A DNA stretch of 64,000 nucleotides from Physcomitrium patens (Eukaryota; Streptophyta; Bryopsida; Funariales; Funariaceae): positions 5,708,735-5,772,734 of the forward strand of contig NC_037271.1 in NCBI RefSeq assembly GCF_000002425.4, written 5' to 3'. Below, one piece after another: positions 1 to 37,808 of the stretch (the first letter of the stretch is position 1; every line of letters begins with the position of its first letter). A program made the translations under genes and the position numbers. The notes under the pieces were generated by a model, which ran no database searches, was not told where the DNA came from, and saw nothing but the letters and a program-made list of their open reading frames with translations.

Positions 1-486
1 AGAAGGACTTCAAAAGATGTGAAAAGAAGGCTTTTGGTATAACTGCTACCAATTTGGATAAAACCAACTTTTTTTACATCATCTCTTGCAAAGGACCAGC
101 AAAAGCATAGAAGGCTCTTTGCAACATATAAGAAAGCAAGAACTTATCTAATATCATTTTCAAAAGGAGAAAGTTTTTCACTTGTAAGATGGAAGAAGGT
201 GAAGATTTCATGGCTCATGTCAAGAAGGTAAAGGCTCTTGCAAATCAATTAGCAATTATTAACAAGCCTATAGAAAAAGGAGATATTATCATAACCTTGC
301 TGATGAATCTTTTCAAGTCCTACAACTACCTCATTGTGATATTGGAGTTCATTAAGTTGAAAGAACTTACAATTGACTATGTGACAACAAGTCTTGTCCA
401 TGAAGTGACCAAGAAGAAAGAAAAAGAGCTTCAAAGTAAAGATTCAATACTCTACTTATGTCAAAGTAAGAAAAATCTTATATAGT
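1..486 (+). pseudogene. Ty1/copia gag remnant
   Basis: This is the middle of a copia gag (capsid-like) protein, entered in the middle of the gene at the window edge. The longest open stretch is 189-485 and has the lysine-rich, Leu/Ile-rich character of copia gag. An in-frame TAG at 108-110 stands where Trp is expected. The copy in the right arm continues back to an ATG at 17110, which shows what is missing here. It is non-functional. Identification rests on the matching gag-PR-IN order downstream and on the related copies at 3955-4095 and 19336-19880. Confidence 0.8.
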
Positions 487-620
487 AATGAGATAATATC
501 AAAACTTACTTTATTTAGAAAAAATAAGGTCATTTTGCATGAAATTATTGCAAGGCTAAAAAAAATACATAAAGTACCAACAATGTACATGAGCAATTTG
601 GAGGAGATTATTTTGCTTTT

Positions 621-1620
621 ATGGCAAGTGAAGGCACTTCTATGGTTGCCATATTCAAGTGGATTGTTGACTCAGCTGCCACTAAGTACATGACACCATA
701 CAAGTATTTATTTGATACTTATGAAGAAATTTCAGCAACAAATGTCTTTATGGGAGACAATGGCATGGTACAAGCTATTGGAATAGGCTCCATTGTAGTG
801 GAGATTGTTGTGAGAGGTCAAACAAAGAGGATCAGATTGAAGGATGTTAGACATATATCTAAGATCAAGAAAAATCTCTTTTTGATGAATAAATTAGTTT
901 TACATGCAATTTGATAAGAACGGATGCTTTATAAAGACATTGGGTAGAGATGATATTGCCAAGGGCTTTAGAAATAGCAACCTTTATTTTATCAAGTACA
1001 AGATAGTGAATAGAGTTGAAGTGGCTGCATTTGTTGAGTTTCCACTTGATCAAGTCAAGTTTAGTATTTGGCATCAATGCCTTGGTCATTTGAACGCGAA
1101 GAACATGAAAGAACTCCAATCCATAGTTAGTAATATGGATCTTAGTTAATTTAGCCACAATACCAATATACTTGCTTGTGAAGGTTGTATTCAAGGCAAA
1201 CAATAAAAGGCCTCATTTCCAAATGGAGTAGCAACACATATTAGCAAGTTGTTAGAGATTTAGATGTTTGTGGACCAATGAAGACACCATCAGTAGGAGG
1301 AGCATAGAATTTTGTCACATTCATTGATGATTTCTCAAGGAAGATGTGGATTTATATCATCAAATTCAAGAATGTGTACTTTTTTTAGATTCAAGGAGTT
1401 TAAGACACTTATAGAAAAATAGTGTGATTATAAGATTAAGGTATTGTACACGAATAATAGAGGTGACTACATGTCAAAGCAATTTGATGAATTTTAAAAG
1501 ATTCAAGGCATTATAAGATAAATCTCTACTCCATATATTTCACAATAATATGGAGTTATTGAAAGAAAAAATTGCACCATAGTAGAGATGGTAAATATTA
1601 AAGAATAGAAGTCTAAAAGC
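621..1620 (+). pseudogene. Ty1/copia protease, pre-integrase and integrase core, dead
   Basis: The order is typical of copia pol. The protease has WIVDSAATKYMT near residue 14, where the usual motif is Asp-Ser/Thr-Gly, so Gly has become Ala. The gag-pre-integrase zinc region includes a CLGHLNAKNMKEL stretch. The integrase core has FIDDFS near 1320 (first Asp). At about 1450-1465 the second catalytic Asp is replaced: TNNRG here against TDNRG in the copy at 5110. A frameshift lies near 905, and several stops follow after 1150. The body ends abruptly near 1620 against an LTR fragment in the opposite orientation. It cannot encode an active polyprotein. Confidence 0.85.
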
Positions 1621-2162
1621 TACAAATACTTAATATCAGTAAAGTTTGTACACAAAGAGAAGTGTAGAATAAGATAACTCTTACTTCCAACACCCTTTAT
1701 TTATAGGTGGTGGTTGCTAATCAACAAGGCAACTTCTATCATTTTGATATTACATCCATTTCTACTTCATCCAATTAAATCTTAGGTTCTTTCTTAATTT
1801 AGCTGCCACCTATAAATCTTAGCTACCACTGTAGTAACTTAATATAATTCTTTGTTATCTTTTAACTATTAGTAACATATTATGCATAATCTCTATGTAG
1901 TTATAACTAAGCAAGTACTTGTTGATCTTCAACACTCTCACTTTTGCTAATTTTTAAAAGGCTTTTAATCCTAATCTTTGTATTAACTCATGATATCTAT
2001 CCTTCACTAATGCCTTTGTAAGCACATGAGCAAGCATGTCATTTATAGCACAATACTTCATACTTATTATTCCACCTTCAATCTACTCTCCTATGAAATG
2101 ATGTTGAATATCAATGTGCTTGGTTCTTGAATGGTATTTTGGATTCTTGAAAAATGTAAGAT
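1621..2162 (-). mobile_element. Copia 3' end in reverse: LTR fragment plus RNase H tail
   Basis: Read on the minus strand, about 1935-2150 encodes the C-terminal tail of a copia RNase H (a LAHVLTKALVKDR-like stretch, and HIDIQHHFIGE before it). It is followed by a partial copia LTR at about 1640-1930. It lies head to head with the plus-strand body before it and the plus-strand LTR after it, so three copia pieces of different orientation are joined here. The same join is present in the right arm. Confidence 0.75.
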
Positions 2163-2790
2163 TGATAAAATAAATATTGGATGAATAAAAGATATTACCT
2201 AATATAAGTTATTAATGATTAAAGGGCGGCAAAAAGTAATAAAAAAGTTATCAAGGTGGCGACTAAGGTTTATAATGGCGGCTAGGTTAAGTGGCTGCTA
2301 AGATTTGGAGTAGCGGCTAGGTTAAGTAGAATCTAAGATTCAGTTAAATGAAGTAAGAATAAATGAGAATGAAGTTGAGCCACAATAGATGTAAACTCTA
2401 CCTATAAGTAAAAGGTGTTTGAAGTAAGAGATATTTCATTCTAGACTTCTTTTGTGTCTAATCTTGTTGATTTCTATTTACTTATATCTTGCTTATTGTA
2501 TTTCTTCAATAGGTTATGGACCTACATATACTTAAATGTGCTTTTTAAATAAGTTAAAGTTATTTATTAGTTATTACTATTGTATGGAATAGATCTTATG
2601 GTGTTTATTGATGTTAGGATTTGTATGATCTAATCTTATATTTTGACTTGTAGAAGTTTTGATTTGGACCTTATAGATTCCTAACATCTGTTTGAAGATT
2701 CTTATTTCTTAGGATTGAGTGATTAAGTCTTTATACAAAGACCTTGATAGTATCTTTGGTGTTGGGATACAACATTGTATTTTCCATATG
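2163..2790 (+). repeat. Ty1/copia LTR
   Basis: It begins with TGATAAAATAAATATTGG, the same start as the LTR at 10050 that directly follows a polypurine tract. It contains the conserved stretch that ends in TTTCTTCAATAGGTTATGG (a likely transcribed part of the LTR), shared with copies at 12000, 17620 and 18800. The 3' boundary is uncertain because the copies diverge after about 2750-2790. Confidence 0.7.
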
Positions 2791-2919
2791 AGGAGCTTTT
2801 GTTGCATTACATATGCATAAATATCAAATTATATGAGGTCTAAATTTGATACAAAAGATATAAATTATGAGTTTTTAGTTATGTTGAAGGTACTAAGGCA
2901 TACAAACTAATGTGCTTAG

Positions 2920-3946
2920 TGTGAGTGTAAATTTTTACACCTCATCCTAAGTTATTAAATGACCTCAATTAATTGTTGCTTGTTATTGATGGTGTGAAGT
3001 GAAATAAGTGAATAATAAGAACAAAAGAAGAACAGCCTAAAAGCAATTGAAATAAATGACATGAAGCAATTACAACTTCCAAAACTAAGTCACAGTCTAT
3101 TTATTATACTTTTACCTAGAAAAAATAAAATTAAATATATTAAAAGTATATTTTTAGATAGCTAATTTTATTTCTTTTCAATGACATAAGAAACATGTCA
3201 ATCCAAATTACTATGAGTATGTTATAAATTTTTAAAGATATGAAGTAAATAATTGAAAAGTGAAGTGAAAATAATTTATCTCAAAGGTAACTTGCTTATA
3301 GATCAAAGGTTCGAGCCTCACCAAGGCTCACATGTAGTGTATAAGGGAGTTTTAGAGAGGATACGAGGTCTTAGTCTTATCCTCCATACTACCTTCAAGG
3401 TGCTACAATCCATATGGGACTTGTACACTCTCCTTCCTAGAAGGACTACACTAGCTGCTGGTCCTCCTATTTTCTACTAAAAAGACCGACATTTTTGTAA
3501 TTTTGACCTCACCATGGTATTCAAAAACATCCAATTAGCTTAGGTAACATGTGAGGCCCTCAAATCTTGCTCCATTTCTTCATAAAGGCTTCGAAAGTAG
3601 TAAAACTCATTTTTACCAAGGTCTTCAAAATTACTCTAAAAATTCCTAATAAATTCTAAATAAATTCTATATATTTTTATAATATTAACATATATTTAAG
3701 GATATATTTTTCTAACTTGAAGATTTTTGAGAATAATAAAAATTAATTTAAATCCACTATAAATCTTATTTTTTATATCAATATCTAAAATGACATGAGG
3801 TTCTTTTTCAATTTTCTTCTAACTACTAACATTTATAGTTTTTATAAGTATTACATATAGATGAAAGACCAAAATAAATATTGGTCTTAATAAATAATCC
3901 TTAATATTCAACAATGAATAAAAATACTAAATCAACTACAACTACT
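2920..3946 (-). repeat. Family-C LTR, truncated at the inverted-repeat junction
   Basis: It matches, in reverse, the complete family-C LTR at 12849-14028 and the solo copy at 7656-8861. The TGTGAGTGTAAA end is present at 2920, but the other end is missing: about 153 bp are lost at the 3946/3947 junction. No internal coding region accompanies it. The open frame at 3253-3480 is an accident inside the LTR. Confidence 0.8.
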
Positions 3947-4258
3947 ACTACAACTACTTCATTGTAGCATTAGAGTCCATCAAACTAAAAGAGATCCTAA
4001 TGGATTATATGATGGAAAGTTTTACTCTTGAAGTGACTAAGAAGAAAAAAAGAAAAAAAGAGTCTCAAAGTGAAGATTTGACTCTCTTTTCAAGATAAGG
4101 CAAGGAAATTTTTTTCTAATCAATGTGGCAATGCAAGAATTTGCTTCATTTGTGGAAAATCAAATTATTTTGCTAGAAATTACTACAAGGTTAAGAAAAG
4201 AGATATAGAAAGTACAAATAATGCTCATAATGAATATGGAGATTATAATTATATATTC

Positions 4259-4727
4259 ATGGCAAGTGAAGGTTTTTCCATGGCTACCATGTCCAAGTGG
4301 TTTGTTGATTCTAGTGCCACTAAGTACATGACTCTATACATGTGTTCATTTGATACTTATGAAAAAAATTTAGCAAGAAATATATTCATGGGAGACAATG
4401 GCTTAGTAAAAACTATTGGAATAGGCTTTATTATAGTAGAGATTGTTGTGAAAGGCCAAAATAAGAGGATCAGATTGAAGGACGTCTTACATGTGCCAAA
4501 GATGAAGAAAAACCTCATCTCGGTGAATAAATTTATTTCACATGGTTATAAAGTACAAATTTGATAAGAATGGGTATTTTATAAAGACATTGAAAGGAGA
4601 TGATGTTGCAAAGGGCTTTAGAAATAGCAACCTCTACTTCATCAAGTGTAAGAAGGTGAATGGAGTTGAAGTCGTGGTATTTGTTAAATTTCCTCAAGAT
4701 CAAGACAAGTTCGACATTTGGCATTGA
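4259..4727 (+). pseudogene. Copia protease and pre-integrase remnant
   Basis: The protease site is FVDSSATKYMT, with Ser where Gly is normal. It is followed by the conserved MGDNG and RIRLKDVLHVPKMKKNL stretches that link protease to the pre-integrase region. The frame shifts near 4560 and continues to 4727, where a TGA follows a Trp-His pair that normally begins the WHQRLGHL zinc-binding segment. Confidence 0.85.
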
Positions 4728-4898
4728 CGTCCTCGTCATTTGAATGCCAAAAGCATGAAGGAGCTCCAATCTATAGTAAATGGCTTAGATCTTAGTCATA
4801 TAAGCCACAATGGTATGACACTTGCTTGTGAAGGTTGTATTTAAGGCAAACAAGAAAGGCCTACATTTCCAAGTGGAGTTGCAACATGTGCAACCAAG

Positions 4899-5295
4899 TT
4901 GTTGGAGATAGTCCATTTTGATGTTTATGGACCTATGAGGATGCCATCAATAGGAGGTGCAAGATACTTTGTCACATTCATTGATGATTTTTCCAAGAAG
5001 GTATTGATTTTCATCCTCAAAGCAAAGAGTGAGTATTTCATAAGGTTTAAGGAGTTTACGGCACTTGTGGAGAAGCAATGTGAGTGCAAAATCAAGATAT
5101 TGCATACAGACAATAGAGGTGAGTATATATCAAAGCAATTCAATGATTTCTTGAAGATGCATGGTATCACAAGACATACCTCTACTCCTTACACTCCACA
5201 AAAAAATGAAGTTGCTGAAAGAACAAATTAAAATATTGTGGAGATGGCAAGGAATATGCTTCATGTCCAACACCTTAGACATAAGTTTTGGGCGG
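4899..5295 (+). pseudogene. Copia integrase catalytic core, first part
   Basis: This rve-type integrase core would join element cDNA to the chromosome. The catalytic residues are visible: Asp in FDVYGPM and FIDDFS (near 4915 and 4980), Asp in HTDNRGEY (near 5105), and Glu in the QKNEVAERTN segment near 5215. A TAA at 5229 interrupts the frame. After HKFWA the sequence is cut by the solo LTR at 5296, and integrase resumes at 6553. The triad is intact here, unlike in the copy at 1255-1590. Confidence 0.9.
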
Positions 5296-6552
5296 TGTCG
5301 TACTATAAATACTTATAATATGTAAAAATTAGTTAAAACATATTATATGTTGATAAATCTAAATGTGTGTTAGAGTGGCTAGTAGATTAAATTAAAAGGA
5401 GTTGGTATAAGAAACTTTACTTTGTTTCTTTACTTGTTTTGATTTTGACATTAAAAAAAAATATACATATAAGACCTAAATATTTAGTATGAAGCCTTGG
5501 GAGAAGGTGGAAGCCTAAGGATGAAAATCTAAACTAATAGGAGGCTAATTGGGAGGGATAAAAGCAAAGCATGGTTGGATGAAGGCAAGGAATGGAGAAC
5601 TTCATCCCTATTGGTCGAAAACCATGCCCAATGGACTTCAAGGAGGCTGCCCGAGGCCATATTAGGGATTAGGGTTCCTCTTTCGGAGGCATTCGGAGAT
5701 TACAAGCTAGGATTGTAAAGTTTAGGATTTGGAGTAAAATTTTTGTACAAAAATTAGAGGATTTGGAGTTAGGATGAAGAAGTTATAGCCGTTTGAAGTT
5801 AAGGTGTTAATTTAAGACATACTGTTATTCTTTTGAGAGTTGAGGAGTTTTACAGAAACTTTTGAAGATCGAAAGGTGCGACTGGAATGGTGATTTCAAG
5901 GCCTACATCTTTCATGAAAGAATTATTGCTTTTGGAGTTCATATGAAGGAGTTGTAAGGAGTTGAAGGCGGCGCTTCCAAATCAAAGGCAGTAAGTAAGC
6001 GGTTTTGTTTTTAGTAATGGTTGGAGCCATAACTTGAGTATTCGGATGAGTTTTTGGCTCAAACTTTTGGAAAATGTAAAATTTTGTGTTAAGAAGATGT
6101 ACATACAAATTTCGTGGCATTTGAGCTTATATTTTGTGAGATATGAAGAAAATTTCAGGTAGATATATAAAGACAAGGGTTTGAAGCGACAGTTAGGGTT
6201 TTCAAGATATCTCAAGATCTGCAACGAATTTGCGGTTGAAATTTGTTGTAAAAGTTAATAAAAATATATCAGTATTTCATGTAAAATTTGAATTTTTTTG
6301 GACGGTCGGATTAGGAGATATGAGGTGTTGAAGTTCGGAAAAATCTCCACATAAGAATAAACAAGGTTTTAGAAGATTTTATCATATTTTGGAAGTTGTG
6401 GGTTACTTGAGGATTGTGTAATTGGTGTAATTACTCAAAAGGAAAAAATTATATATAAAATTAAGGCTTCCCTTATTTTGAAGCTTGATTGAATAATTAG
6501 TGATAGCCAGAAGTCCAACGTATTCTTGAGGCAAACTCTCTCTACCTCGACA
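5296..6552 (+). repeat. Solo LTR of gypsy family A nested in copia integrase
   Basis: It starts TGTCGTACT and ends CTCGACA. It is the reverse complement of a diverged LTR of the element at 20531-28023 (AAAATTAGT region, the CCAATGG...GAGGCTGCC block near 5630, and the TTCTTGAGGCAA end). It is flanked by the 4-bp duplication GCGG (5292-5295 and 6553-6556). Removing it restores the integrase reading frame. No internal region is left, so it is a solo LTR formed by LTR-LTR recombination. Confidence 0.9.
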
Positions 6553-7330
6553 GCGGAAGCAGTCATGAATGCAACGTACACAAGAAATAGATATCTTATA
6601 AGTGCACTTATATCAATAACTCCAAAAGAAGCTTGGAGTGAGAGAAAACCTTATGTTTCCCACATGAAGACCTTTAGATGCATAGCATATACAAAGACAC
6701 TAGATTGTATGAGATCAAAATTTTATAAAAAAGGTACAAAATGTGTATTTTTTGGATATTGTGAAGATACAAAGGCTTATAGGCTCATGTATTTGGAGAC
6801 CAAAAAGATCATCAAAAGTCGTGATGTTGAGTTTTTGGAGCACAAGAGTGCTTGTGAGCACTTGGAGATGTGTCTAAGTAGAAGTAATAGTGTGATCATG
6901 GATACATCTTCAAATTTAACAAAGAAGGAAGAAGATGAAAACAATGATGGTTGTAAAGGTGGAAATGAAAGATGGAGAGGCAAAGAAGGTAGAGAATAAA
7001 GCCTTTAAAAATGCTAAGACTAGCAATGATAAGCATGAAGATGTTGATGGTGATGGTAATTCGGATTATCAATCTTTGAGTGAAAAAAAAACTATCTATA
7101 AAAGAAAATAAGGTTGGAAGAGACCATAGAATGCAACAAGATGAATCTTCTTCAAATGAAAGGAGATATCCTTTAAGAGATAGAAAACAACATAGCGAAT
7201 GGTGGAAGAATTACATCTTTCCTCAAGTAACTGAAGAACATGTCAATGTTGCACTTTTTAGTGATCCATTGAGTTTGTGTGATGCAATGAAGTCCATAAA
7301 TACTTTGAAGTGGGAGAAAGCCAAAGAAGA
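6553..7330 (+). pseudogene. Copia integrase C-terminal part and linker
   Basis: The frame continues directly from the integrase piece before the solo LTR (EAVMNATYTRNR). It then shows the typical copia stretches TPKEAWSERKP, FRCIAYT and GYCEDTKAYRLMYLETKKII. It ends in an acidic, low-complexity linker and a YPLRDRKQH segment, which precede the reverse transcriptase. Frame breaks occur near 7000 and 7334. The paralogue at 12432-12848 on the minus strand covers the same linker. Confidence 0.85.
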
Positions 7331-7412
7331 ATAGTATCAATCACTCATGGACAATGGAACATGGAAATTGACTCAACTTCTATCACATTGAGCTTCAATT
7401 GGTTGTAAGTGA

Positions 7413-7655
7413 GTGTTTAGAATAAAGAGAGATACAATGGTCAATGTTGTAAAGTATAATGTAAGATTAGTTGTTAAAGACTACTTGCAAGTTGCTGGTG
7501 TTGATTTCAATGAGACATTTGGTCCCATGGCCAAATTCACCACTATTAGAACTATTGTGGAAATTGGAGCAACAATGGACTTGGAGATGCATCAAATGGA
7601 TGTGAAGATAGCTTTCTTAAATGGAGAGTTAGAAGAAGACATCTATATGGATCAA
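7413..7655 (+). pseudogene. Copia reverse transcriptase, first part
   Basis: This is the N-terminal reverse transcriptase domain: YNVRLVVKDYLQVAGVDFNETF, followed by MHQMDVKIAFLNGELEEDIYMDQ, which carries the first catalytic Asp (MDVK). The solo LTR at 7656 cuts the frame after MDQ, and the domain resumes at 8862 with PQGFVKEG. In the uninterrupted paralogue at 17960-18222 the two parts are contiguous, which confirms the join. Confidence 0.9.
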
Positions 7656-8861
7656 TGTGAGTCATTAAATTGACTCACTTATTGTTTTAGGATAAAAATA
7701 TGCATTTAGAATGCTTTAAATCATAATATATAATAAGTAGTATAGAAATCCTTAGAGAAATAGAAAATTAAAATATTAGTGGTAGAAATGGAGTCTTAGT
7801 AAAACTTGGAGGTAATTATCTACATTGGGTTAGTATTTTTATTCATTATTAAATAATAAAAATTATTTATTAATACCAATATTTATATTGTTCTTCTATC
7901 TATATGTAATACTTATAAAAACTATTAATGTTAGTAGTTAGAAGAAGCATGAGAAAGAACCTCATATCATTTTAGTTATTGGTATAAAAAAATATGATTT
8001 ATAGTAGATTTAAATTGATTTTTATTATTATAAAAAATCAAAAAAATAGGAAAATATAGCCTTATATAGATATTAGTATTATAAAAATATTATAAGATTT
8101 TTATAATTTATTTAGAATTTATTTATATTTTTTTAGGAATTTTTAAAGCAATGTTTAAGATCTTGGTAAAAATGAGTTTTACCACTTCGGAACCCATTAT
8201 GAAGAAAGGGAGTAAGATTTGAAGGCCATACTAAGTTCCTCAGCTAATTGGGTATTTTTAAACACCATGGTGAAGTCAAAAATACAAAAAAATGATTTTT
8301 ACTAGTAGAAAATAGGAGGATCAGCAGCTAGTGTAGTCCTTATAGGAAGGGAGGTACACAAGTCCCATATGGATTGTAGCACCTTGAAGGTAGTTAAGAG
8401 GATAAGACTAAGGCCTCGTGGCCTCTCTTAGACACCCTTATACACTACATGTGAGCCTTGGTAAGGCTCGAATCCTTGATCTATAAGCAAATTATCCTTG
8501 AGGTAAAACATTTTCAATTAACTTTTTGTTTATTTACTTGTTGTTTCAAACCTTCATAACTTACTCATAGTAATTTGGATTTACATGTTTTTTTATACCT
8601 TTGGAAAGATAAAAAAAAATCTATCTAAAAATATACTTTTTATATTTTATTTTTACTTTTTATTGGATAAAAACATAGTAAACAGACTGTAACTAAGTTT
8701 TGGAGTAAGTATTTGCTTGTATACATTTCTTTCAGTTGTTTGTGTTTTTTTCTTCTTTTTTTCTTATTCATTGCATCTTCTACTTCATATTATCTATTAC
8801 AAGTAACTCTTAATTGAGGCCATCTTGTGATTTGGATAGAAGGGTAAAATTTACACTCACA
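7656..8861 (+). repeat. Solo LTR of family C with 5-bp target duplication
   Basis: It begins TGTGAGTC and ends ACTCACA, which gives the inverted TG...CA ends of an LTR. It is flanked by a perfect ATCAA duplication (7651-7655 and 8862-8866). Removing the LTR and one ATCAA restores the copia reverse transcriptase. The same family occurs at 2920-3946 and 12849-14028. No internal region of family C is present in the window, so its superfamily is not known. Orientation is arbitrary. Confidence 0.92.
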
Positions 8862-10049
8862 ATCAACCTCAAGGATTTGTTAAAGAAGGTAAGAAACATC
8901 TTATTTTTAAGTTGAAGAAAACTTTTTATGGGCTCAAGCAATTACCAAGGATATAATATCAATGCATTGACACATTCTTTATGAATGAGGGATTTATGAG
9001 AAGTGATGCTAATCATTTCATGTATGTGATGCAATCAAAAGTCTTCTTATTGATTATTATTCTTTATATTGATGATTTAATCATCTTGACCAACACCTTG
9101 AAAAAGATGGATTGGTTGAAGGCAAAGCTAGCAAAAGAATTTGAGATGAGTGATTTGAAAGAGCTCCATTATTACTTAGGAATGGAATTTGTGAGAGATC
9201 GAGTTAAAAAAATCATTACATTGAGTCAAAAGAAGTATATTAAAGAAGTATTAAAACGATTCAACATGGAAGAGTGCAAGCCTATTGGAACACCATTGGA
9301 AGCCAATATGAAGTTGATAAAGCTCATGGATGAGGAGGTTACTAAAGTTAAAGATGAAATGAAAGATGTTCTATATAAGGCAATAGTAAGCTCACTTATG
9401 TATACAATGGTTGGCACAAGGATGGATCTTGCATATGCAATGAGTGTTGTGAGTCAACACATGTCAAAGGCTAGACCAATCTAGAGGAAAACCATTAAGA
9501 GAATCTTGAGGTACTTAAAAGGTACTTTGAACTTCAAATTGAGCCTTGGAGATGATAATATTGCATTGCATGGTTACTATGAGGTGAATTAGGTTAGAGA
9601 TACAAATGATAAAAGGTCAAAAATTGGATATGTATTCTTTATTGAAGTGGGAATAATTTCATGGAATTACAAGAGAGAACCAACAATTGCAAGGTCTACA
9701 ATAGAGAAAAAATATATGACAGCAAGTCGTGGTGCAATGAAGGCAATATGGCTTAGATAATGTTTAGAAGATATTAGACTTATGTAAATAGAAGCAACTC
9801 CAATAAAGTGTGATAACTAAAGATATCTTGCTTTTGTAAAGAATCCAAAGAATCACTTAAAAACTAAACACATTCACATTCAACATCACTTCATAAGAGA
9901 GAAGATTGAAATAGAAGTGATTGACATGAAATATTATATAATAGAAGACATGCTTGCTGATTTGCTCACAAAAGTACTAATAAAGGATAGGCATCAAAAG
10001 TTAAAAAAGGTACTAGGATTAATGGCCTTTGACTAATAGTAAAGTGGGA
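8862..10049 (+). pseudogene. Copia reverse transcriptase (second part) and RNase H
   Basis: The reverse transcriptase continues with the catalytic LYIDDLIIL box near 9065-9090 (YIDD, compatible with activity), then LKELHYYLGMEF and YIKEVLKRFNMEECKP. RNase H follows after a stop at 9482, with WNYKREPTIARSTIEKKYMTAS near 9660-9725 and the terminal TKHIHIQHHF and DMLADLLTKVL segments near 9870-9970. Stops in the RNase H part show decay. The end of the frame abuts the polypurine tract and LTR at 10050. Confidence 0.88.
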
Positions 10050-12030
10050 GTGATAAAATAAATGTTAAAAAAATAAAAGATATTATCAAATGTAAGTTGT
10101 TAATAATTAAAGGATAGCAAAAGATAATAAGAAAGTTATCAGGGTGGCATCTAAGGTTTATAGTGGCAGTATCGTGTTGTGATTTGGCTACCATGTGAAA
10201 ATAATGTGTTTATATATTTAATATACAATATATTGGATAATATGGTGAAAGCCATATTAGTGGATTTTTGTTGGTTGTAGAATGTGGATAGATTACAACT
10301 TCAAAAATAAATAGTTTAAAAGGATTTCTATTAGAATTTATATAATTTTATTTTCTTTTGATAGTGACTTTAAAGTTGATCTTACTAGTAGTAACTTTTA
10401 AATATTTAGAATCACCTTTGTTAGATATTGATGACTCTTAAAGTCTTATTTTGGTTCTTTATATAATATTTAGGGCATATATTGAGTAAATCTTGTAAAG
10501 AAAAGAGTTAGAGAGGGATTTTGGTACCAAAAAGAGAGTTTAGGACATCCATACAGATGAATGGAGATGGATGATGAAAATTTCCATTCCTACTGGTTAA
10601 AAATCATGACCAATGGGCTTCGAGGAGGCTGCCTGAGGCCATATTAGAGATTAGGATTAATTTTTTGAAGGTATTTGAGCTTTGAAAGCTAAAATCAGCA
10701 AGTTTAGATTTTTGGTTATAATTTTGGTGCATATTTTGAGTCCTTTGGAGTTTATATGAAAGAGATATGGGTGCTCAAAGTTAAAGTGTTGATTTTATAC
10801 TTACTATCACTCTTTTGGATATAACACATGCATATGGAAAGCAACAAAGGATCAGTAGCTAGGATTGGAGAGAATATTCTTTTAACTATACTCTCTATAT
10901 ATTGCCTAATAAATTTTGAGTTGAACAAAAGAAGTTATTGGAAGTTGAAATTAGCATTTGGAATCTAAGGAGTTGTAAGTGATCCGAATTACTAGTAGTT
11001 GTGTTTTGAGCTATTTCTTGTGTAATTTGATAAGATTATGGCTAAGAATTTCTAAAAATATATGTTTTCTGTTATTAAACTTTATACATAATTTTTGTGA
11101 CATTTAGATTTTGGATTTGTGAGATATGAAGAAAATAGTACTTAGGTGCTTGTAAATTAGGGTTTTAGAGCACTTGCTTGGATTTTTAAGATGCTAGACG
11201 ATTAGTAGCAAATTTACTACTGAAATTTTAAGAAATGAAGCTTAAGGATGAATTCTATGATATTTATAAATTTGGCAAAATTTGAATAGTTGGATCAAGA
11301 GATATGAATTTCTAAAATTTAAAAAGAAAAAATTCTTTGCTGAAATATTATATTTTAGAGGGATTTTATTATATCTTGAGCATTTTATATAAAATAAAGG
11401 AGTATTTTGGAAGCCAAGACTTTATATATATATATTGAAGATAGATATATAGAGCTATGGTTGAATTTTTGTATAAAGATGAGCTTTTGAGAGGAGATTG
11501 TAGATTTCTTTTGAAGTTATTGAAAACCTAATTTACCACCAAATAGTTAGCTATGATTTGGTATAGCCAAGAATTTTAGAAAATTTCTAGATATTTTAGA
11601 AAGCCTTATGTACAAACCTTCTTAAATATAAAATAGTTTATTAATATAATATTTTTTTGATATTGTTGTATTTATTTGTCTTCTACTTTTACATTTAAAT
11701 AACTTATTAGAGCTTGGCCAATAAGTTAAAATTAAACTCTCTATAACTAGATATCCAATGTATCCCCAAATAGAAAACCAATATAATAACATGTTTAGTT
11801 AAATGGTAGCTAGGGTTTGAAGTGAAGGCTAGGTTAAGTAGAATCTAGGATTCAGTTGGATGAAATAAGGATAAATAAGAATGAAGTTGAGCCAAAATAG
11901 ATATAAGTTCTTCTTATAAGTAAAAGATATTGGAAGTGAGAGGTATTTCATTCTACACTTATTTCATTCTACACTTATTTTTATTGCTGATTTTTACTTA
12001 CTTGTATCTTGCTTATTGTGTTTCTTCAAT
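10050..12030 (+). repeat. Copia 3' LTR, split by a family-A-like LTR
   Basis: The LTR starts TGATAAAATAAATG right after the polypurine tract. Its first 120 bp align with the LTR at 2163. It resumes near 11792 with the stretch corresponding to about 2285-2510 and ends near the TTTCTTCAATA block at 12020. The DNA between belongs to another insertion (10170-11791). The outer end runs into a minus-strand copia fragment. Confidence 0.8.
10170..11791 (+). repeat. Family-A-like solo LTR, diverged
   Basis: It starts like the LTR at 33586 (a TGTGATTTGGCTACCATGTGAAAATAATG-type stretch) and holds the family-A block with CCAATGGGCTTCGAGGAGG near 10610-10640. It is about 1.6 kb, longer than the 1.25 kb of the young A LTRs. 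No clean target duplication is visible. Either it is an older subfamily or it contains further insertions. Confidence 0.6.
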
Positions 12031-12848
12031 ATAGACATCCTTGATTGTCACACATAATAAGATTTGCTTCTAATTGCACTAGTTCAATGTCTTCTACAAG
12101 TTGATTTATCCAACATGCCTCCATTACACAATGACTTGCTGCCATGTACTCTGCTTCCATTGTTGATCTTGGAATAGTAGGTTATCTCTTACAATTCCAT
12201 GAAATAGCTTCTATTCCAATGAAAAAGACATATTTCATTATGGATCTCTATCATTTGTATTTCTAGCCCAATTTGCATCACAATAACCTTGCACATCAAT
12301 GTTCTTACCACCAAGGTATAATTTGAAGGTCTTTGTACCTTTTATTATTTCAATATTCTCTTTATCGTTGTCTAATGTAACAATCCAGCCTTAGACATGT
12401 TTTTCACTTACTTGAGAAAGATGAGATCTTTCTACCATTCACCACGTTGCTTTCTTTCTCTCAAAAGATATCTCTTTTTATTTGTAGAAGAAGATTCACC
12501 TTGTTGCACCCTATATTCTTTTCTATCCTTCTTTTCTCTTAAACCTTCTTGTTTTTCACTCAAAGGTTGGTATTCTTCATCATTATTATCATCATAATCT
12601 TCAACATCTTCGTTTCTTTTATTGTTGTTCTTTGTAATTCTAGGAGCCTTCATCTTTTCAAACTTCTTTGGCTTTTCATCTATATCATCTTTATTGTCTT
12701 CATCTTCTTGTTTCTTTATTAAATTCAAAGATGTGACCACAAACACACTATTACTCCAACTTGAATACATCTCAAAATACTCACAAGTACTCTTGTGCAC
12801 CAAAAACTCAACATCACGACTTTTGATGATCTTTTTTGTTTCCAAGTA
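12030..12848 (-). pseudogene. Copia RNase H piece and integrase-RT linker, minus strand
   Basis: Minus-strand 12040-12330 resembles copia RNase H (GYCDANWA-like stretch near 12265-12290). 12432-12840 encodes the acidic linker between integrase and reverse transcriptase (YLETKKIIKSRDVEFL, then Asp/Glu/Lys-rich sequence and a RYLLRERKQRGEW end). The reverse transcriptase expected between them is missing, so this is an internally deleted copy. It is cut at 12849 by a family-C LTR. Confidence 0.75.
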
Positions 12849-14028
12849 TGAGTCATCAAATTGTCTCATTTATTATTTTAAAATAAAAATATACATTAAG
12901 AATGCTTTAAATCACAATATATAATGAATAGTATAGAAATCCTTAGAGAAATAAAAAATTAGAATGTTAATGGAATAAATGGAGTCTTAGTAAGTCTTCG
13001 AAGTAGTTGTAGTTGATTTAGTATTTTTATTCATTGTTGAATATTAAGGATTATTTATTAAGACCAATATTTATTTTGGTCTTTCATCTATATGTAATAC
13101 TTATAAAAACTATAAATGTTAGTAGTTAGAAGAAAATTGAAAAAGAACCTCATGTCATTTTAGATATTGATATAAAAAATAAGATTTATAGTGGATTTAA
13201 ATTAATTTTTATTATTCTCAAAAATCTTCAAGTTAGAAAAATATATCCTTAAATATATGTTAATATTATAAAAATATATAGAATTTATTTAGAATTTATT
13301 AGGAATTTTTAGAGTAATTTTGAAGACCTTGGTAAAAATGAGTTTTACTACTTTCGAAGCCTTTATGAAGAAATGGAGCAAGATTTGAGGGCCTCACATG
13401 TTACCTAAGCTAATTGGATGTTTTTGAATACCATGGTGAGGTCAAAATTACAAAAATGTCGGTCTTTTTAGTAGAAAATAGGAGGACCAGCAGCTAGTGT
13501 AGTCCTTCTAGGAAGGAGAGTGTACAAGTCCCATATGGATTGTAGCACCTTGAAGGTAGTATGGAGGATAAGACTAAGACCTCGTATCCTCTCTAAAACT
13601 CCCTTATACACTACATGTGAGCCTTGGTGAGGCTCGAACCTTTGATCTATAAGCAAGTTACCTTTGAGATAAATTATTTTCACTTCACTTTTCAATTATT
13701 TACTTCATATCTTTAAAAATTTATAACATACTCATAGTAATTTGGATTTACATGTTTCTTATGTCATTGAAAAGAAATAAAATTAAATATCTAAAAATAT
13801 ACTTTTAATATATTTAATTTTGTTTTTACTAGGTAAAAGTATAATAAATAGACTGTGACTTAGTTTTGGAAGTTGTAATTGCTTCATGTCATTTATTTCA
13901 ATTGCTTTTTGGCTGTTCTTCTTTTGTTCTTATTATTTACTTATTTCACTTCACACCATCAATAACAAGCAACAATTAATTGAGGTCATTTAATAACTTA
14001 GGATGAGGTGTAAAAATTTACACTCACA
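12849..14028 (+). repeat. Family-C LTR, complete, without target duplication
   Basis: It begins TGAGTCATC and ends TTTACACTCACA. It aligns along its full length with the solo LTR at 7656-8861. The flanks (AAGTA and CTAAG) do not match, so one side was probably rearranged after insertion. The inverted-repeat arm begins inside it, at 13002. Confidence 0.85.
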
Positions 14029-16947
14029 CTAAGCACATTAGTTTGTATGCCTTAGTACCTTCAACATAACTAAAAACTCATAATTTATATCTTTTGTATC
14101 AAATTTAGACCTCATATAATTTGATATTTATGCATATGTAATGCAACAAAAGCTCCTCATATGGAAAATACAATGTTGTATCCCAACACCAAAGATACTA
14201 TCAAGGTCTTTGTATAAAGACTTAATCACTCAATCCTAAGAAATAAGAATCTTCAAACAGATGTTAGGAATCTATAAGGTCCAAATCAAAACTTCTACAA
14301 GTCAAAATATAAGATTAGATCATACAAATCCTAACATCAATAAACACCATAAGATCTATTCCATACAATAGTAATAACTAATAAATAACTTTAACTTATT
14401 TAAAAAGCACATTTAAGTATATGTAGGTCCATAACCTATTGAAGAAATACAATAAGCAAGATATAAGTAAATAGAAATCAACAAGATTAGACACAAAAGA
14501 AGTCTAGAATGAAATATCTCTTACTTCAAACACCTTTTACTTATAGGTAGAGTTTACATCTATTGTGGCTCAACTTCATTCTCATTTATTCTTACTTCAT
14601 TTAACTGAATCTTAGATTCTACTTAACCTAGCCGCTACTCCAAATCTTAGCAGCCACTTAACCTAGCCGCCATTATAAACCTTAGTCGCCACCTTGATAA
14701 CTTTTTTATTACTTTTTGCCGCCCTTTAATCATTAATAACTTATATTAGGTAATATCTTTTATTCATCCAATATTTATTTTATCAATCTTACATTTTTCA
14801 AGAATCCAAAATACCATTCAAGAACCAAGCACATTGATATTCAACATCATTTCATAGGAGAGTAGATTGAAGGTGGAATAATAAGTATGAAGTATTGTGC
14901 TATAAATGACATGCTTGCTCATGTGCTTACAAAGGCATTAGTGAAGGATAGATATCATGAGTTAATACAAAGATTAGGATTAAAAGCCTTTTAAAAATTA
15001 GCAAAAGTGAGAGTGTTGAAGATCAACAAGTACTTGCTTAGTTATAACTACATAGAGATTATGCATAATATGTTACTAATAGTTAAAAGATAACAAAGAA
15101 TTATATTAAGTTACTACAGTGGTAGCTAAGATTTATAGGTGGCAGCTAAATTAAGAAAGAACCTAAGATTTAATTGGATGAAGTAGAAATGGATGTAATA
15201 TCAAAATGATAGAAGTTGCCTTGTTGATTAGCAACCACCACCTATAAATAAAGGGTGTTGGAAGTAAGAGTTATCTTATTCTACACTTCTCTTTGTGTAC
15301 AAACTTTACTGATATTAAGTATTTGTAGCTTTTAGACTTCTATTCTTTAATATTTACCATCTCTACTATGGTGCAATTTTTTCTTTCAATAACTCCATAT
15401 TATTGTGAAATATATGGAGTAGAGATTTATCTTATAATGCCTTGAATCTTTTAAAATTCATCAAATTGCTTTGACATGTAGTCACCTCTATTATTCGTGT
15501 ACAATACCTTAATCTTATAATCACACTATTTTTCTATAAGTGTCTTAAACTCCTTGAATCTAAAAAAAGTACACATTCTTGAATTTGATGATATAAATCC
15601 ACATCTTCCTTGAGAAATCATCAATGAATGTGACAAAATTCTATGCTCCTCCTACTGATGGTGTCTTCATTGGTCCACAAACATCTAAATCTCTAACAAC
15701 TTGCTAATATGTGTTGCTACTCCATTTGGAAATGAGGCCTTTTATTGTTTGCCTTGAATACAACCTTCACAAGCAAGTATATTGGTATTGTGGCTAAATT
15801 AACTAAGATCCATATTACTAACTATGGATTGGAGTTCTTTCATGTTCTTCGCGTTCAAATGACCAAGGCATTGATGCCAAATACTAAACTTGACTTGATC
15901 AAGTGGAAACTCAACAAATGCAGCCACTTCAACTCTATTCACTATCTTGTACTTGATAAAATAAAGGTTGCTATTTCTAAAGCCCTTGGCAATATCATCT
16001 CTACCCAATGTCTTTATAAAGCATCCGTTCTTATCAAATTGCATGTAAAACTAATTTATTCATCAAAAAGAGATTTTTCTTGATCTTAGATATATGTCTA
16101 ACATCCTTCAATCTGATCCTCTTTGTTTGACCTCTCACAACAATCTCCACTACAATGGAGCCTATTCCAATAGCTTGTACCATGCCATTGTCTCCCATAA
16201 AGACATTTGTTGCTGAAATTTCTTCATAAGTATCAAATAAATACTTGTATGGTGTCATGTACTTAGTGGCAGCTGAGTCAACAATCCACTTGAATATGGC
16301 AACCATAGAAGTGCCTTCACTTGCCATAAAAGCAAAATAATCTCCTCCAAATTGCTCATGTACATTGTTGGTACTTTATGTATTTTTTTTAGCCTTGCAA
16401 TAATTTCATGCAAAATGACCTTATTTTTTCTAAATAAAGTAAGTTTTGATATTATCTCATTACTATATAAGATTTTTCTTACTTTGACATAAGTAGAGTA
16501 TTGAATCTTTACTTTGAAGCTCTTTTTCTTTCTTCTTGGTCACTTCATGGACAAGACTTGTTGTCACATAGTCAATTGTAAGTTCTTTCAACTTAATGAA
16601 CTCCAATATCACAATGAGGTAGTTGTAGGACTTGAAAAGATTCATCAGCAAGGTTATGATAATATCTCCTTTTTCTATAGGCTTGTTAATAATTGCTAAT
16701 TGATTTGCAAGAGCCTTTACCTTCTTGACATGAGCCATGAAATCTTCACCTTCTTCCATCTTACAAGTGAAAAACTTTCTCCTTTTGAAAATGATATTAG
16801 ATAAGTTCTTGCTTTCTTATATGTTGCAAAGAGCCTTCTATGCTTTTGCTGGTCCTTTGCAAGAGATGATGTAAAAAAAGTTGGTTTTATCCAAATTGGT
16901 AGCAGTTATACCAAAAGCCTTCTTTTCACATCTTTTGAAGTCCTTCT
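13002..16947 (-). repeat. Right arm of the giant inverted repeat
   Basis: It is the reverse complement of 1-3946. In order along the plus strand it holds most of a family-C LTR (13002-14028), a reversed copia LTR whose TGATAAAATA end is at 14785, a copia RNase H tail in plus orientation (about 14790-15010), a partial LTR (about 15015-15310), and the integrase-protease-gag body on the minus strand (15320-16947). The body continues beyond the arm to its gag start at 17110. The true outer edge cannot be placed because the left arm leaves the window at position 1. Confidence 0.95.
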
Positions 16948-17110
16948 CCTTAGCATCTGCATTTATGCTTGGAGCCTCTTCACTTTCATCTACAATATCT
17001 CAAATGTCCAAAGATGCCAACAAAAGCTTCATTTTGATCTTTTAATAGTAGAAATTCTCTCCTCTAAGCTTTTCAATCACTCTCAAACCTTCACCTTCAC
17101 TAGAAGCCAT
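15320..17110 (-). pseudogene. Ty1/copia gag-protease-integrase, minus strand
   Basis: This is the same sequence as 1-1620, extended outward to a gag start at 17108-17110 (MASSEGEGLRVIEKLRG). Two stops (near 17040 and 17005) and a third at the Trp position near 16840 break gag. The one near 17005 is TGA in a place where Trp is expected. Protease and integrase carry the same lesions as in the left arm: DSA instead of DSG, a frameshift near 16045, and Asn for the second catalytic Asp of integrase. The 5' LTR lies at 17145-17891. Confidence 0.85.
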
Positions 17111-17144
17111 GTCTAAAAAGGGCTCTATCTAAAAAAATATCATG

Positions 17145-17891
17145 AAAAGGAGTCACTATGAGCTTGAAATGATCAAATCAATTAAATACTAGTAGAATCT
17201 CAAAAAACCTTATTGTAAATAAATGAGTGCTTTCTTGCTCAAAATATTTTCAAATCAAGTTGTGAAGCTTCTAACAAGTATGTGTACTCCAATAAACCTC
17301 GCTATTATGAACTTTGACTCTTTGGAATCAACTATTTTACTATACACATAAGGTAAGTGAAACAACATCAGAAAAATAAAAGATACTATCAAGGTCTTTC
17401 TATAACATCTTAAACTCTCAATCTAGGGAGATAAAAATCCACAAAGTAATGTTAGAGATCTATAAGGTCAAAGTTAGCACCTCTTCATGCCTAAAACACA
17501 AGTTTCATTCTTAAAAATCCTAATATCAACAAATACCATGAGATCTATTCCACATAAGTACAATCACAAGAAAATAACACTCACTTACTTGAATGGCATA
17601 AAAAAGTGAAAGTGGACTCATAATCTATTAAAGAAATACAATAAGCAAGACACAAGTAAGTAGAAATTAGCAAGGTTGCAAACAAGAGAAGTGTGGAATG
17701 AGATGCCTGTTACTTTCAATATCCTTTACTTATAGGTAGAATTTACATCTAATATGGCTGAACTTCATCTTCATCCAATGAAATCCTAGCTATTACTTAA
17801 CCTAGTAGCTACTTAAAATCCTAATTACTTCTTTTCACTATTTTGCTATCCTTTGACTATTGACCTAAGGTAATACTTACTTACTTTATCA
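17145..17891 (-). repeat. Copia LTR, minus strand, 5' of the gag at 17110
   Basis: On the minus strand it starts TGATAAAGTAAGTAAG at 17891 and contains the same CTTCAATAGATTATG-type block as the other copia LTRs (near 17620). The end towards gag is not defined: the LTR and leader cannot be separated and I could not recognise a primer-binding site. Confidence 0.6.
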
Positions 17892-17941
17892 TACCTATGA
17901 TAATATTTATTTATTTTAAATAAATAACTATTTATAAGTTT

Positions 17942-18547
17942 TTGATGTTGATTTCAATCATATGTTTGCTCCCGTGGCCAAATTCACCATCATTAAAACT
18001 ATTGTGGCAATTGGTGCAGTAATAGACTTGGAGATGCATCAAATGGATGTGAAGACAGCTTTCTTAAATGAAAAGTTGGAAGAAGATATCTACATAGATC
18101 AACCTCAAGGATTTGTTGAAGGTGGCAAACAACACCTTGTTTGTAAGTTGAAGAAATCTTTGTATAATTTAAAACAATTACCAAGGGTATGGTACCAATG
18201 TATAGACATTTTTTTTAAATGAGGGATTTATAAGAAAAGAGACTAATCATTCTTTGTATGTGATGCAATCAAATGAATTTATATCAATTTTCATCCTCTA
18301 TGTTGATGATTTGATCATATTAAGTAACACTATGAAGAAGATGGATTGGTTGAAGGCAAAGTTAGACAAAGAGTATGAGATGAATAACTTAGAAGAACTC
18401 CTTTATTCTTTAGGAGTGGAATTTGCAAGAGATCGTCATAATAAGACTATTACAATGAGCCAAAGCATGTACATTAAAGAAATATTGAAACAATTCAACA
18501 TGGAGGATTGTAAGCCTATTGGAATACCTTTAGAAGCCAACTTGTAA
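17942..18547 (+). pseudogene. Ty1/copia reverse transcriptase fragment
   Basis: The frame runs through MHQMDVKTAFLNEKLEEDIY, QPQGFVEGGKQHLVCKLKKSLY and, after a frameshift near 18222, LYVDDLIILSNT (the YVDD box near 18300) and LEELLYSLGVEFARD. It is the most complete continuous copy of this domain in the window and has no nested LTR. It begins and ends abruptly: a reversed LTR end sits at 17891 and another LTR fragment begins near 18548. Confidence 0.85.
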
Positions 18548-19320
18548 AATTACTTTCTTTCACTCTTTTGCTGCCCTTTGACTATTAGCAACTTACCTAA
18601 GATAATACTTACTTAGTTTAATAGAACCAAGGGTTTAGTTGAATGAAGTCAAAATGGATGTAATATCCAAAGGATGGAAGTTGCCTCATTGATTAGCAAC
18701 CACCACCTATTAGGTAAAGAGTGTTGAAAGTGGGAGGTATTTCATTCCACACTTCTCTTGTGTACAACCTTGCTGATTTTTACTTACTTGTTTCTTGCTT
18801 GTTATATTTCTTCAATAGGTTATGGGCCCACTCAAACTTTGTTGTACCATTCAAGTAAGTTAGTGTCATTCTCTTATAGCTGTACTTGTGTAGAATAGAT
18901 CTTATGGTATTTGCTAATATTAGGATTTCTAAGATTGAAACTTGTGTTTTAGGAATGAAGAGGTGCTGACTTTGACCTTATAGATCTCTAACATTGCTTT
19001 GTGGATTTTTATCTTCCTAGATTGAGAGTTTAAGATGTTATAGAAAGACCTTGATAGTATCTTTTATTATTCTGATGTTGTTTCACTTACCTTATGTGTA
19101 TAATAAAATAGTTGATTCCAAAGAATCAAAGTTCATAATAGTGAGGTTTATTGGAGTACACATACTTGTTAGAAGCTTCACAACTTGATTTGAAAATATT
19201 TTGAGCAAGAAAGCACTCATTTATTTACAATAAGGTTTTTTGAGATTCTACTAGTATTTAATTGATTTGATCATTTCAAGCACATAGTGACTTCTTTTCA
19301 TGATATTTTTTTAAATAGAG
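18548..19320 (+). repeat. Copia LTR and leader
   Basis: 18548-18615 resembles a reversed LTR end (compare 17832-17880). From about 18616 the plus-strand LTR runs through the block with CTTCTCTTGTGTACAACCTTGC and TTTCTTCAATAGGTTATGGGC (near 18750-18825) to the gag leader. It mirrors 17145-17891 around the RT fragment, giving a second, imperfect inverted arrangement. Confidence 0.65.
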
Positions 19321-19880
19321 CCCTTCTTAGACATAGCTTCTAGTAAAGGTGAAGGTTTGAGAGTGATTGAAAAGCTTAGAGGAGAGAATTTCTACCATTG
19401 GGAGATCAAAATAAAGCTTTTGTTGGCATCTTTGGACCTTTGAGATATTGTAGATGAAGATAAAGAGGCTCCAAGCATAAATGCAGATGCTAAAGAAAAA
19501 AAAGACTTCAAAAGATGTGAAAAGAAGGCTTTTGGCATAATTGCTACTAATTTGGATAAAACCAATTTTTTTCACATCATCTCTTATAAAGGACTAGCAA
19601 AAGCATAGAAGACTCTTTGTAGCATATAAGAGAGCAAGAACTTGTCTAACATCATCTTCAAAAGGAGGAAGTTCTTCACTTGTAAGATGGAAGAAGGTGA
19701 AGATTTCATGGCTCATGTCAAGAAGGTAAAGGCTCTTGTAAATCAATTAATAATTATTGACAAGCCTGTAGAAAAAGGAGATATTGTCATGATCTTGTTG
19801 ATGAATCTTTCCAAGTCCTACAACTACTTCATTGTGACATTAGAGTCCATTAAGCTGAAAGAACTTACAATTGAGTAGGT
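19321..19880 (+). pseudogene. Copia gag remnant, start codon lost
   Basis: It is colinear with the minus-strand gag at 17110, but the start reads ATA at 19333-19335 instead of ATG. The rest follows with stops, including TGA near 19440 and TAG near 19609. A clear frame from 19642 gives FKRRKFFTCKMEEGEDFMAH and ends at TAG near 19876. It is truncated where a reversed LTR fragment begins. Confidence 0.8.
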
Positions 19881-21781: not shown

Positions 21782-22008
21782 TCCACCCCCTCCAAACGTG
21801 CACATCCTCCGGTATGTGCCACATACTACTCTTCTTCATCCTCCTGAGACTTCTTGGAATCACTCAAAGAGTCTTCTTCTTCATGTTCTTGGTCTAAATA
21901 TTGAGGTAAGAATTCTTCAAGATCTTCTATTTGAAACCACCCATCTCTTCTTTTGAAAGCCTTCACCCTCTTCCCTGCTATTGGAATTCTAATGATAGCT
22001 CCATCTAA

Positions 22009-22200
22009 CTAACGTAAAGTATATGTGGCATTATTATGGACTACAACCACCACATATGGTCCAAACCATTTTTTTGCAAATTTCTTTACAGTACTATGTT
22101 GATGTTCAAAGCTGCTATCATAAACTAGAACCCAATCTCCAATCTCTATAGGTTTAGGCCTTAACCTATGAATCTTATCAAACCTCTCTTTATTTTTCAA
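22009..22200 (-). CDS. Element A integrase C-terminal domain
   Basis: The frame has KPIEIGDWVLVYDSS followed by KKWFGPYVV and TYTLR. This is the small SH3-like C-terminal domain of gypsy integrases (the GDWVLV...GPY pattern), which binds DNA. A TAA near 22230 separates it from the core, so the two would not be made as one protein. Confidence 0.8.
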   Translation of the reverse strand: MKNKERFDKIHRLRPKPIEIGDWVLVYDSSFEHQHSTVKKFAKKWFGPYVVVVVHNNATYTLR

Positions 22201-22230
22201 TCTTGCTTCCTTTAACCTCTCAGCTGCAAT

Positions 22231-24277: not shown

Positions 24278-24303
24278 ATGCCCCCATCTTACAAGGGTAC
24301 TTT

Positions 24304-25194: not shown

Positions 25195-25290
25195 ATCTGT
25201 AGATGATTCAATCTCAGATTGAAGTTTATAAGCAGGAGTTTTACCTTTAGGTTTGCTTTTATCTTCTTTCTTCTTTTCTTTGCCCTTCTC

Positions 25291-26511: not shown

Positions 26512-26773
26512 TTCACATGTATAAACCTGAGGAACTTAGTAATGTTCCTCCCATCAAACCTCCCAACCTTATCCAACACTACTTGTAAAGCTTTGGTGGT
26601 ATTCTTATCCTCCCCATGCACCTGTTGCCTTTCTTCCATAAATTGAGCAAATGCCCTGAATAAATCATGACCACCTACTCAACTTGGTAACCCAAACCCA
26701 GGAACTTGATCCCCCATTCTAACTTATTGAAAATTTTAGTGCCTTAAGGCTCTCTCAGTAGAAGCACCAAATA

Positions 26774-29800: not shown

Positions 29801-29837
29801 TGTCAAAAAACGAATTTCTTCAATTACAATAAGAATT

Positions 29838-37805: not shown

Positions 37806-37808
37806 GGA

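What the first reader, a model, noticed from the sequence alone, without database searches (positions are those of the whole stretch)
1..16947. Identical 3.9-kb inverted repeat arms around a 9-kb spacer
Positions 1-3946 and 13002-16947 are reverse complements with no difference in any part I compared, although everything inside them is old, decayed transposon DNA. The copy event is thus far younger than its content. Possible causes: recent inverted duplication, gene conversion keeping the arms identical, or a mis-assembly of two haplotypes. Large inverted repeats can promote inversion of the spacer and can give rise to hairpin RNA and small RNAs if transcribed.
Basis: seen in the sequence. Interest (0 to 1): 0.7.

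Follow-up and report, generated by a model that had tools for sequence, protein, structure and literature searches.

The report
Recent inverted copy beside assembly gap
A stretch of old, broken transposon DNA in what is probably a moss chromosome appears a second time nearby, backwards and almost letter for letter identical, ending exactly at a hole in the assembly; it looks like a recent copying accident during DNA repair, though an assembly error is not excluded.

Summary
The inverted pair is in the sequence: 1-3946 and 13002-16947 match at 3939 of 3946 bases; the seven differences all fall in 3010-3199. Window base 1 is the first base after 11,823 Ns, so a contig edge sets the left arm's length. 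The right arm is the original: old elements run unbroken through both its edges. The left arm is a displaced copy, joined at 3946/3947 in the middle of two unrelated elements. Both parents share a 13-bp word at the joint, and a 12-mer stands there twice in tandem. This excludes transposon terminal repeats and fits microhomology-primed fold-back copying across a 9-kb loop. At four sites the left-arm base is clearly private, one weak site points the other way. Three fetched gene pairs elsewhere in this genome, probably Physcomitrium patens, are near-identical and inverted without gaps, so an in-vivo event is plausible. A chimeric contig end is the main rival; reads are needed. New member of a known kind, modest interest. 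An excess of inverted over direct close gene duplicates deserves a genome-wide test.

The parts
1..3946 (+). Left arm: displaced inverted copy of the right arm; its outer end is the contig edge after an 11,823-N run
   Evidence: 3939/3946 identical to revcomp of 13002-16947; base 1 follows the N run; family copies stop at its ends but run on through the right arm
13002..16947 (-). Right arm: original copy, embedded in continuous old elements on both sides
   Evidence: 19 of 20 fetched LTR copies align across 13001/13002 and 4 of 5 copia paralogues across 16947/16948; 40 of 48 other match rows cross 16947
3935..3960 (+). Junction: 12-mer ACTACAACTACT in tandem (3935-3946, 3947-3958) followed by TC; shared parent word CTACAACTACTTC (3948-3960), 14 bp if the A at 3947 is counted, whose origin is unknown
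   Evidence: In the related copia copies the word reads CTACAACTAC(T/C)TC exactly in 2 of 5 and 5 of 11; the rest differ from it by a few bases
13000..13013 (-). Partner copy ACTACAACTACTTC at the inner edge of the right arm
3948..9484 (+). Native copia-type element (Pol_BBD, integrase, SH3-like and RT remnants; interrupted by the solo LTR 7656-8861) truncated by the junction in the part that lies before Pol_BBD (gag in the related copy)
   Evidence: 37 of 39 other listed genomic copies begin to match at 3948-3952; 11 of 11 fetched copies continue upstream. Domains:
3947..13001 (+). Spacer between the arms, the proposed fold-back loop
12847..14028 (-). Solo LTR (TSD CCAAG/CTAAG, one mismatch) that straddles the right arm's inner edge
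   Evidence: 34 other listed copies of its 2920-3936 part at 83-87%, one more at 75%
2920..3946 (+). Copy of that LTR in the left arm, cut short at the junction
3010..3199 (+). All 7 arm differences; at 3010, 3038, 3120, 3199 the left-arm base is private against 20-21 of 21 other copies
16572..19874 (.). Older inverted pair (16572-17737 / 18705-19874, 91%) that crosses the right arm's outer edge and shows that edge to be unbroken

Best explanation
A recent one-sided inverted duplication made by microhomology-primed template switching (fold-back or MMBIR type). Inferred steps: a broken or stalled end inside the copia element at about 3948 exposed a 3' strand; that strand paired about 9 kb away with the same 13-bp word at the right arm's inner edge (13000-13013), slipped by one 12-bp unit, and then copied rightwards at least from 13002 to 16947. 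That laid down the left arm in inverted orientation and left the 9,055-bp loop as a spacer. How far copying went, and how the end was healed, is hidden in the gap. Shown: the direction of copying (right arm original, left arm copy), a joint that breaks two unrelated elements, the shared word and the tandem 12-mer, and near-identity up to the joint. Not shown: that the joint exists in the living genome. No function is indicated; possible consequences (spacer inversion, hairpin RNA) are untested.
For: Right arm native at both edges: 19 of 20 fetched LTR copies and 4 of 5 paralogues, 40 of 48 other match rows. Copia at 3948 truncated: 37 of 39 listed copies begin to match there, 11 of 11 fetched copies extend upstream. 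Shared 13-bp word at the joint: in 20,000 random pairs >=13 bp occurred once and >=11 bp ten times. The 9,055-bp spacer lies in the range of 21 sequenced human inverted duplications (766-70,466 bp, 20 of 21 under 15 kb; PMC3907307, abstract and passages). 0 differences in 3756 bp outside the cluster give a 95% upper bound of 8e-4, about 57,000 years at a recalled plant rate of 7e-9 per site per year. Three of three fetched gene pairs elsewhere are inverted at 98.1-99.7% identity with no N in the fetched 10 kb, so such structures occur away from gaps in this assembly.
Against: The left arm abuts an 11,823-N run, with a second gap 18.9-23.9 kb to the left: the classic place for a chimeric contig end. 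The differences cluster in 190 bp and four or five of seven are private to the left arm, which also fits poor consensus quality there; at 3126 it is the right-arm base that is seen in 0 of 21 copies. The 13-bp word is longer than the 2-8 bp at 13 of 21 human joints (3 others lie in long repeats of 82-95% identity), and the right-arm LTR is locally unlike its family just at that word. The microhomology test was made after seeing the joint. The second junction is not observable.
Confidence: 0.6

Rival explanations
1. Artefact at a contig end: a chimeric clone, chimeric read or gap-filling step added an inverted piece of the right arm to the contig edge, and later polishing with right-arm reads made it nearly identical.
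For: Arm begins exactly at the gap; differences confined to 190 bp and mostly private to the left arm; in the fetched 50 kb to the left no near-identical inverted match to 16948 onwards (only 67-70% inverted matches of the gypsy part 21970-24779 at -37.6 to -41.4 kb). Palindromic chimeras are a known product of whole-genome amplification (PMC6218980, search listing with start of abstract only).
Against: A joint at a 13-bp shared word with a 12-bp slip looks like a polymerase product and not like a false overlap, although polymerase chimeras also arise in vitro. Near-identical inverted pairs also occur without gaps in this assembly (3 of 3 fetched). A real, long identical repeat would itself make an assembly break here.
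Confidence: 0.33
2. An old inverted duplication whose arms are kept identical by gene conversion; the 190-bp cluster is a patch that escaped.
For: [quoted passage not shown] Inverted pairs with equal score are frequent here. Site 3126 may have changed on the right arm, as expected if both arms had aged.
Against: Identity runs to the last base before the joint (747 identical bp next to it), where conversion should leave divergent edges; the four clearly polarised differences all lie on one arm.
Confidence: 0.06
3. Terminal inverted repeats of a large DNA transposon or foldback element.
For: Long arms around a spacer.
Against: Neither arm end is an element end: the inner edge lies inside an LTR and inside a copia element, the outer edge is a contig edge on the left and unbroken copia on the right.
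Confidence: 0.01

Closest known systems
Fold-back inverted duplications with single-copy spacer (human inv-dup; PMC3907307, abstract and passages seen)
   Same: Inverted copy, spacer of kilobases, inverted homology at the spacer/inversion joint
   Different: Here at least 3.9 kb and, if the gap size is right, at most about 15.8 kb, inside a chromosome; no terminal deletion seen; shared word 13 bp with a 12-bp slip
Near-identical inverted gene pairs in the same genome (light-harvesting pairs fetched; HSP70 pairs of P. patens in PMC5028893, passages seen)
   Same: Close, inverted, arms 98.1-99.7% identical in the three fetched
   Different: Those carry genes and have no gap within the fetched 10 kb; this one holds only decayed retrotransposon DNA and abuts a gap
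Inverted repeats of P. patens surveyed in PMC2600652 (passages seen)
   Same: Inverted repeats are common there: 132,656, 6.2% of the genome
   Different: Median arm identity there 79%; here 99.8% over 3946 bp

Membership tests
Fold-back / template-switch inverted duplication | Spacer between the original and its inverted copy that is not itself part of the inverted pair | tested here: met
   Spacer 3947-13001; it does hold relatives of arm elements at 76-82%
Fold-back / template-switch inverted duplication | Short inverted homology between spacer end and start of the inverted copy | tested here: met
   13-bp word in both parents; >=13 bp in 1 of 20,000 random pairs; test made after seeing the joint
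Fold-back / template-switch inverted duplication | A second junction or terminal deletion where copying ended | tested here: inconclusive
   Hidden in the 11,823-N gap; far side shows no near-identical inverted match
Fold-back / template-switch inverted duplication | Joint present in single DNA molecules | not testable with these tools
   No reads available
Transposon with terminal inverted repeats | Arm ends are element ends with target-site duplication | tested here: not met
   Arm edges lie inside other elements or at a contig edge
Contig-end assembly artefact | Duplicate sits at a contig end | tested here: met
   Base 1 follows 11,823 Ns
Contig-end assembly artefact | No read support or abnormal depth at the joint | not testable with these tools
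   No reads available
Arms homogenised by gene conversion | Divergence rises towards arm edges, differences on both arms | tested here: inconclusive
   Inner edge shows no rise (747 identical bp); outer edge is cut by the gap; four clear differences on the left arm, one doubtful (3126) on the right

The most novel reading that the evidence does not exclude
The pair is the transposon-only example of a genome-wide rule in this moss: close near-identical duplicates survive almost only when inverted, because its very active homologous recombination (recalled) deletes direct repeats (leaving solo LTRs, as in this window) but can only flip or homogenise inverted ones. Evidence: of 23 neighbour pairs with equal profile score within 120 kb in three gene families, 17 are inverted, and under 27 kb 14 of 15 are. 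The 27-kb cut was chosen after seeing the data, pairs in one cluster are not independent, 18 of the 23 come from one family, and HSP70 holds a direct pair at 19 kb.
Probability: 0.2. Interest if true: 0.6.

Novelty: new member of a known kind. Interest (0 to 1): 0.35.

Why it matters
If real, it is a fresh, base-resolved example of fold-back copying in a plant, with the donor, the direction and the priming word all readable. If not, it is a caution that gap-edge inverted copies can look convincing. The inverted bias among close duplicates would, if it holds genome-wide, let one test how strong homologous recombination shapes which duplicates a genome keeps.

Tried and rejected
Transposon terminal repeats: rejected, since arm edges are not element ends. 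Left arm as the original: rejected for the same reason. Gene conversion of the left-arm patch from another genomic copy: not supported, best other listed copy 87% over 2980-3230 (40 of 1514 candidates scored). Continuation of the inverted copy beyond the gap: no near-identical inverted match in the 50 kb to the left (the listed matches there are below 82%, among them 67-70% inverted matches of the gypsy part 21970-24779). A mutation-spectrum argument was dropped as underpowered: 3 of the 7 differences are transitions, the right-arm LTR shows 14 of 40 transitions against the family majority, the other copies 370 of 651. Assembly history: Lang et al. 2018 is not held, and the searches listed no paper that I recognised as describing this assembly (I opened none of the genome papers listed). 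Print on inverted duplicates in Physcomitrella; no listed title names this locus. Never answered: the right-junction genome search (window 12400-13500) and three further gene families planned as a test of the orientation bias, PF02797, PF00190, PF00141.

Species: inferred, not given. Matches seen on C1-C27 and, singly, C38 and C68 of a 470-Mb genome; a light-harvesting protein whose best single-domain PDB matches are 8htu and 7xqp, which I recall as P. patens (9vfj ranks first on a two-domain sum); HSP70 pairs on C1 and C7 arranged as PMC5028893 describes for P. patens Chr1 and Chr7.
Full report
Observation. Bases 1-3946 equal the reverse complement of 13002-16947 at 3939 of 3946 positions without gaps. 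The seven differences lie at 3010-3199; random placement would put seven within 190 bp with probability about 8e-8. Of the 25 longest of 41 inverted pairs in the window the next best are 92% and 91%. The arms end sharply: beyond 3946/13002 four of the next nine bases differ and the context is unlike.

The window lies at C19:5708735-5772734 of a 470-Mb genome in 101 contigs. The 11,823 bases before base 1 are N, and another 5000-N run lies at -23856 to -18857. The left arm therefore starts exactly at a contig edge, its 3946-bp length is set by that edge, and its true outer end is unknown. No N was found in 10 kb to the right of the window and in a further 50 kb to the left of the first 50. I take the Ns as an assembly gap; the tool also uses N for withheld stretches.

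Which arm is the original. The block 2920-3936 of the arm is part of a ~1.2-kb solo LTR: the sister copy 7656-8861 runs TG...CA with a perfect 5-bp target duplication ATCAA, and the right-arm copy 12847-14028 has CCAAG/CTAAG. Of 20 genomic copies fetched with 100-bp flanks (of 34 listed at 83-87%), 19 align across the right arm's inner edge 13001/13002; the exception (L028) ends at 13012. Against the left arm all 20 stop at 3931-3937. At the outer edge, 4 of 5 copia paralogues align straight through 16947 (L007 stops at 16689), and 40 of 48 other match rows for 16300-17700 cross that point, the other 8 being short fragments (counted by reading the table; 40 of 2727 candidates scored). So the right arm is embedded in continuous old elements and the left arm is a displaced copy.

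What the left arm is joined to. From 3948 rightwards lies another copia-type element. Of 39 other genomic copies listed (40 of 4558 candidates scored), 37 begin to match at 3948-3952, one 6 bp earlier and one 275 bp later. The 11 that came with flanks go on upstream: 10 of 10 align with the eleventh over 987-1001 bp at 83-86%, sequence which the window lacks. Five less close paralogues agree. The joint therefore cuts through an LTR on one side and a copia element on the other; it is the end of neither. This excludes terminal inverted repeats of a transposon.

The joint. The right arm reads ...TCAACTACAACTACTTCGAAG, related copia copies read ...AGTC CTACAACTAC(T/C)TCATTG or within a few bases of it, and the window reads ...TCAACTACAACTACT ACTACAACTACTTCATTG. 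Both parents hold CTACAACTACTTC (13 bp; 14 if the A at 3947, of unknown origin, is counted), and in the product the 12-mer ACTACAACTACT stands twice in tandem. In 20,000 random position pairs from the window, a shared word of 13 or more bases occurred once and of 11 or more ten times; the test was designed after seeing the joint. A template switch primed by this word, with one slip of 12 bases, gives exactly this product. One puzzle: the right-arm LTR is less like its family just at this word.

The differences. At 3010, 3038, 3120 and 3199 the right-arm base is that of 20 or 21 of 21 other copies, and the left-arm base is seen in none. At 3162 the right-arm base is in 14 of 21 and the left-arm base in none; at 3161 each is in 9; at 3126 it is the right-arm base that is in none and the left-arm base in 4, so that one change may lie on the right arm. 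No other listed copy is closer than 87% to this stretch (40 of 1514 candidates scored), so a conversion donor is not supported. Error-prone repair synthesis and poor consensus quality both fit. Outside the cluster 0 of 3756 positions differ, which bounds the age at about 57,000 years under a recalled rate of 7e-9.

Is it real? Against: it sits at a contig edge beside a gap. For: the joint looks like a polymerase product; a real, long identical repeat would itself stop an assembler; and this genome holds other near-identical inverted pairs. In the light-harvesting family (85 matches), neighbours with equal profile score within 120 kb make 18 gene pairs after 3 extra exon rows were merged by eye, 14 inverted and 4 direct. 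Cytochrome P450 (92 of 209 candidates scored) adds one inverted (18 kb) and one direct pair (37 kb); HSP70 (73 of 84 scored) adds two inverted (5.9 and 26 kb) and one direct (19 kb). The last two tallies were read by eye. In all 17 of 23 are inverted, and under 27 kb 14 of 15; the cut was chosen after seeing the data and the pairs within one cluster are not independent. Equal score is a stand-in for near-identity. Three pairs that fit in 10 kb were fetched: 1618 bp with 5 differences and a 354-bp spacer (L062), 1689 bp at 99.70% (L063), 2166 bp at 98.1% (L064), none with an N; one search prints 100% for L062, the direct count is 5 differences.

Known context. In 21 sequenced human inverted duplications the spacer is 766-70,466 bp (median 3,428; 20 of 21 under 15 kb); 13 joints have 2-8 bp of inverted homology, 3 lie in long repeats and 5 have insertions (PMC3907307, abstract and passages). 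A survey of P. patens found 132,656 inverted repeats covering 6.2% of the genome with median arm identity 79% (PMC2600652, passages). Three of four P. patens HSP70 tandem pairs are tail-to-tail (PMC5028893, passages), and similarity of its tandem genes has been ascribed to gene conversion (PMC3045890, passages).

Verdict. Best reading: a recent fold-back or template-switch inverted duplication, about 0.6. Main rival: a chimeric contig end, about 0.33. It is a new member of a known kind, with no function indicated. Reads across 3946/3947 would settle it. Apart from that, the apparent lack of close, equal-scoring direct duplicates in the three gene families looked at may be the more interesting lead.

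Noticed in passing
G000 C27, C20, C26, C4, C12, C14, C23, C5, C3, C16, C2, C1, C7; L062, L063, L064: Close gene duplicates with equal profile score are mostly inverted: 17 of 23 pairs within 120 kb, 14 of 15 under 27 kb (cut chosen afterwards).
   Followed up: partly
L062:3151-6740: Near-identical inverted arms (5 differences in 1618) begin next to what looks like the start codon ATGGCGCAGGCACTG, and the sequences just upstream are unlike, as if only the part from the start codon on were copied or kept alike.
   Followed up: no
window 20531-28023: Gypsy-type element (RVT_1, rve below cut-off) with LTRs 99.92% identical but no matching target-site duplication at its ends, unusual for a young insertion.
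   Followed up: partly
window 12990-13013: The right-arm solo LTR is locally less like its family exactly at the junction word; chance, or a trace of the event.
   Followed up: no
window -18856 to -11823: The 7-kb island between the two gaps is similar (72-77%) to several stretches of the window's right half such as 29632-33583, 41370-46289 and 59725-63998.
   Followed up: no
window 37806-37998: Two tRNA genes, Leu(CAG) and Ala(TGC), 35 bp apart on the minus strand.
   Followed up: no
window 54948-56475: Exons that read like a WD-repeat protein of the Sec13 kind (by eye; not searched).
   Followed up: no
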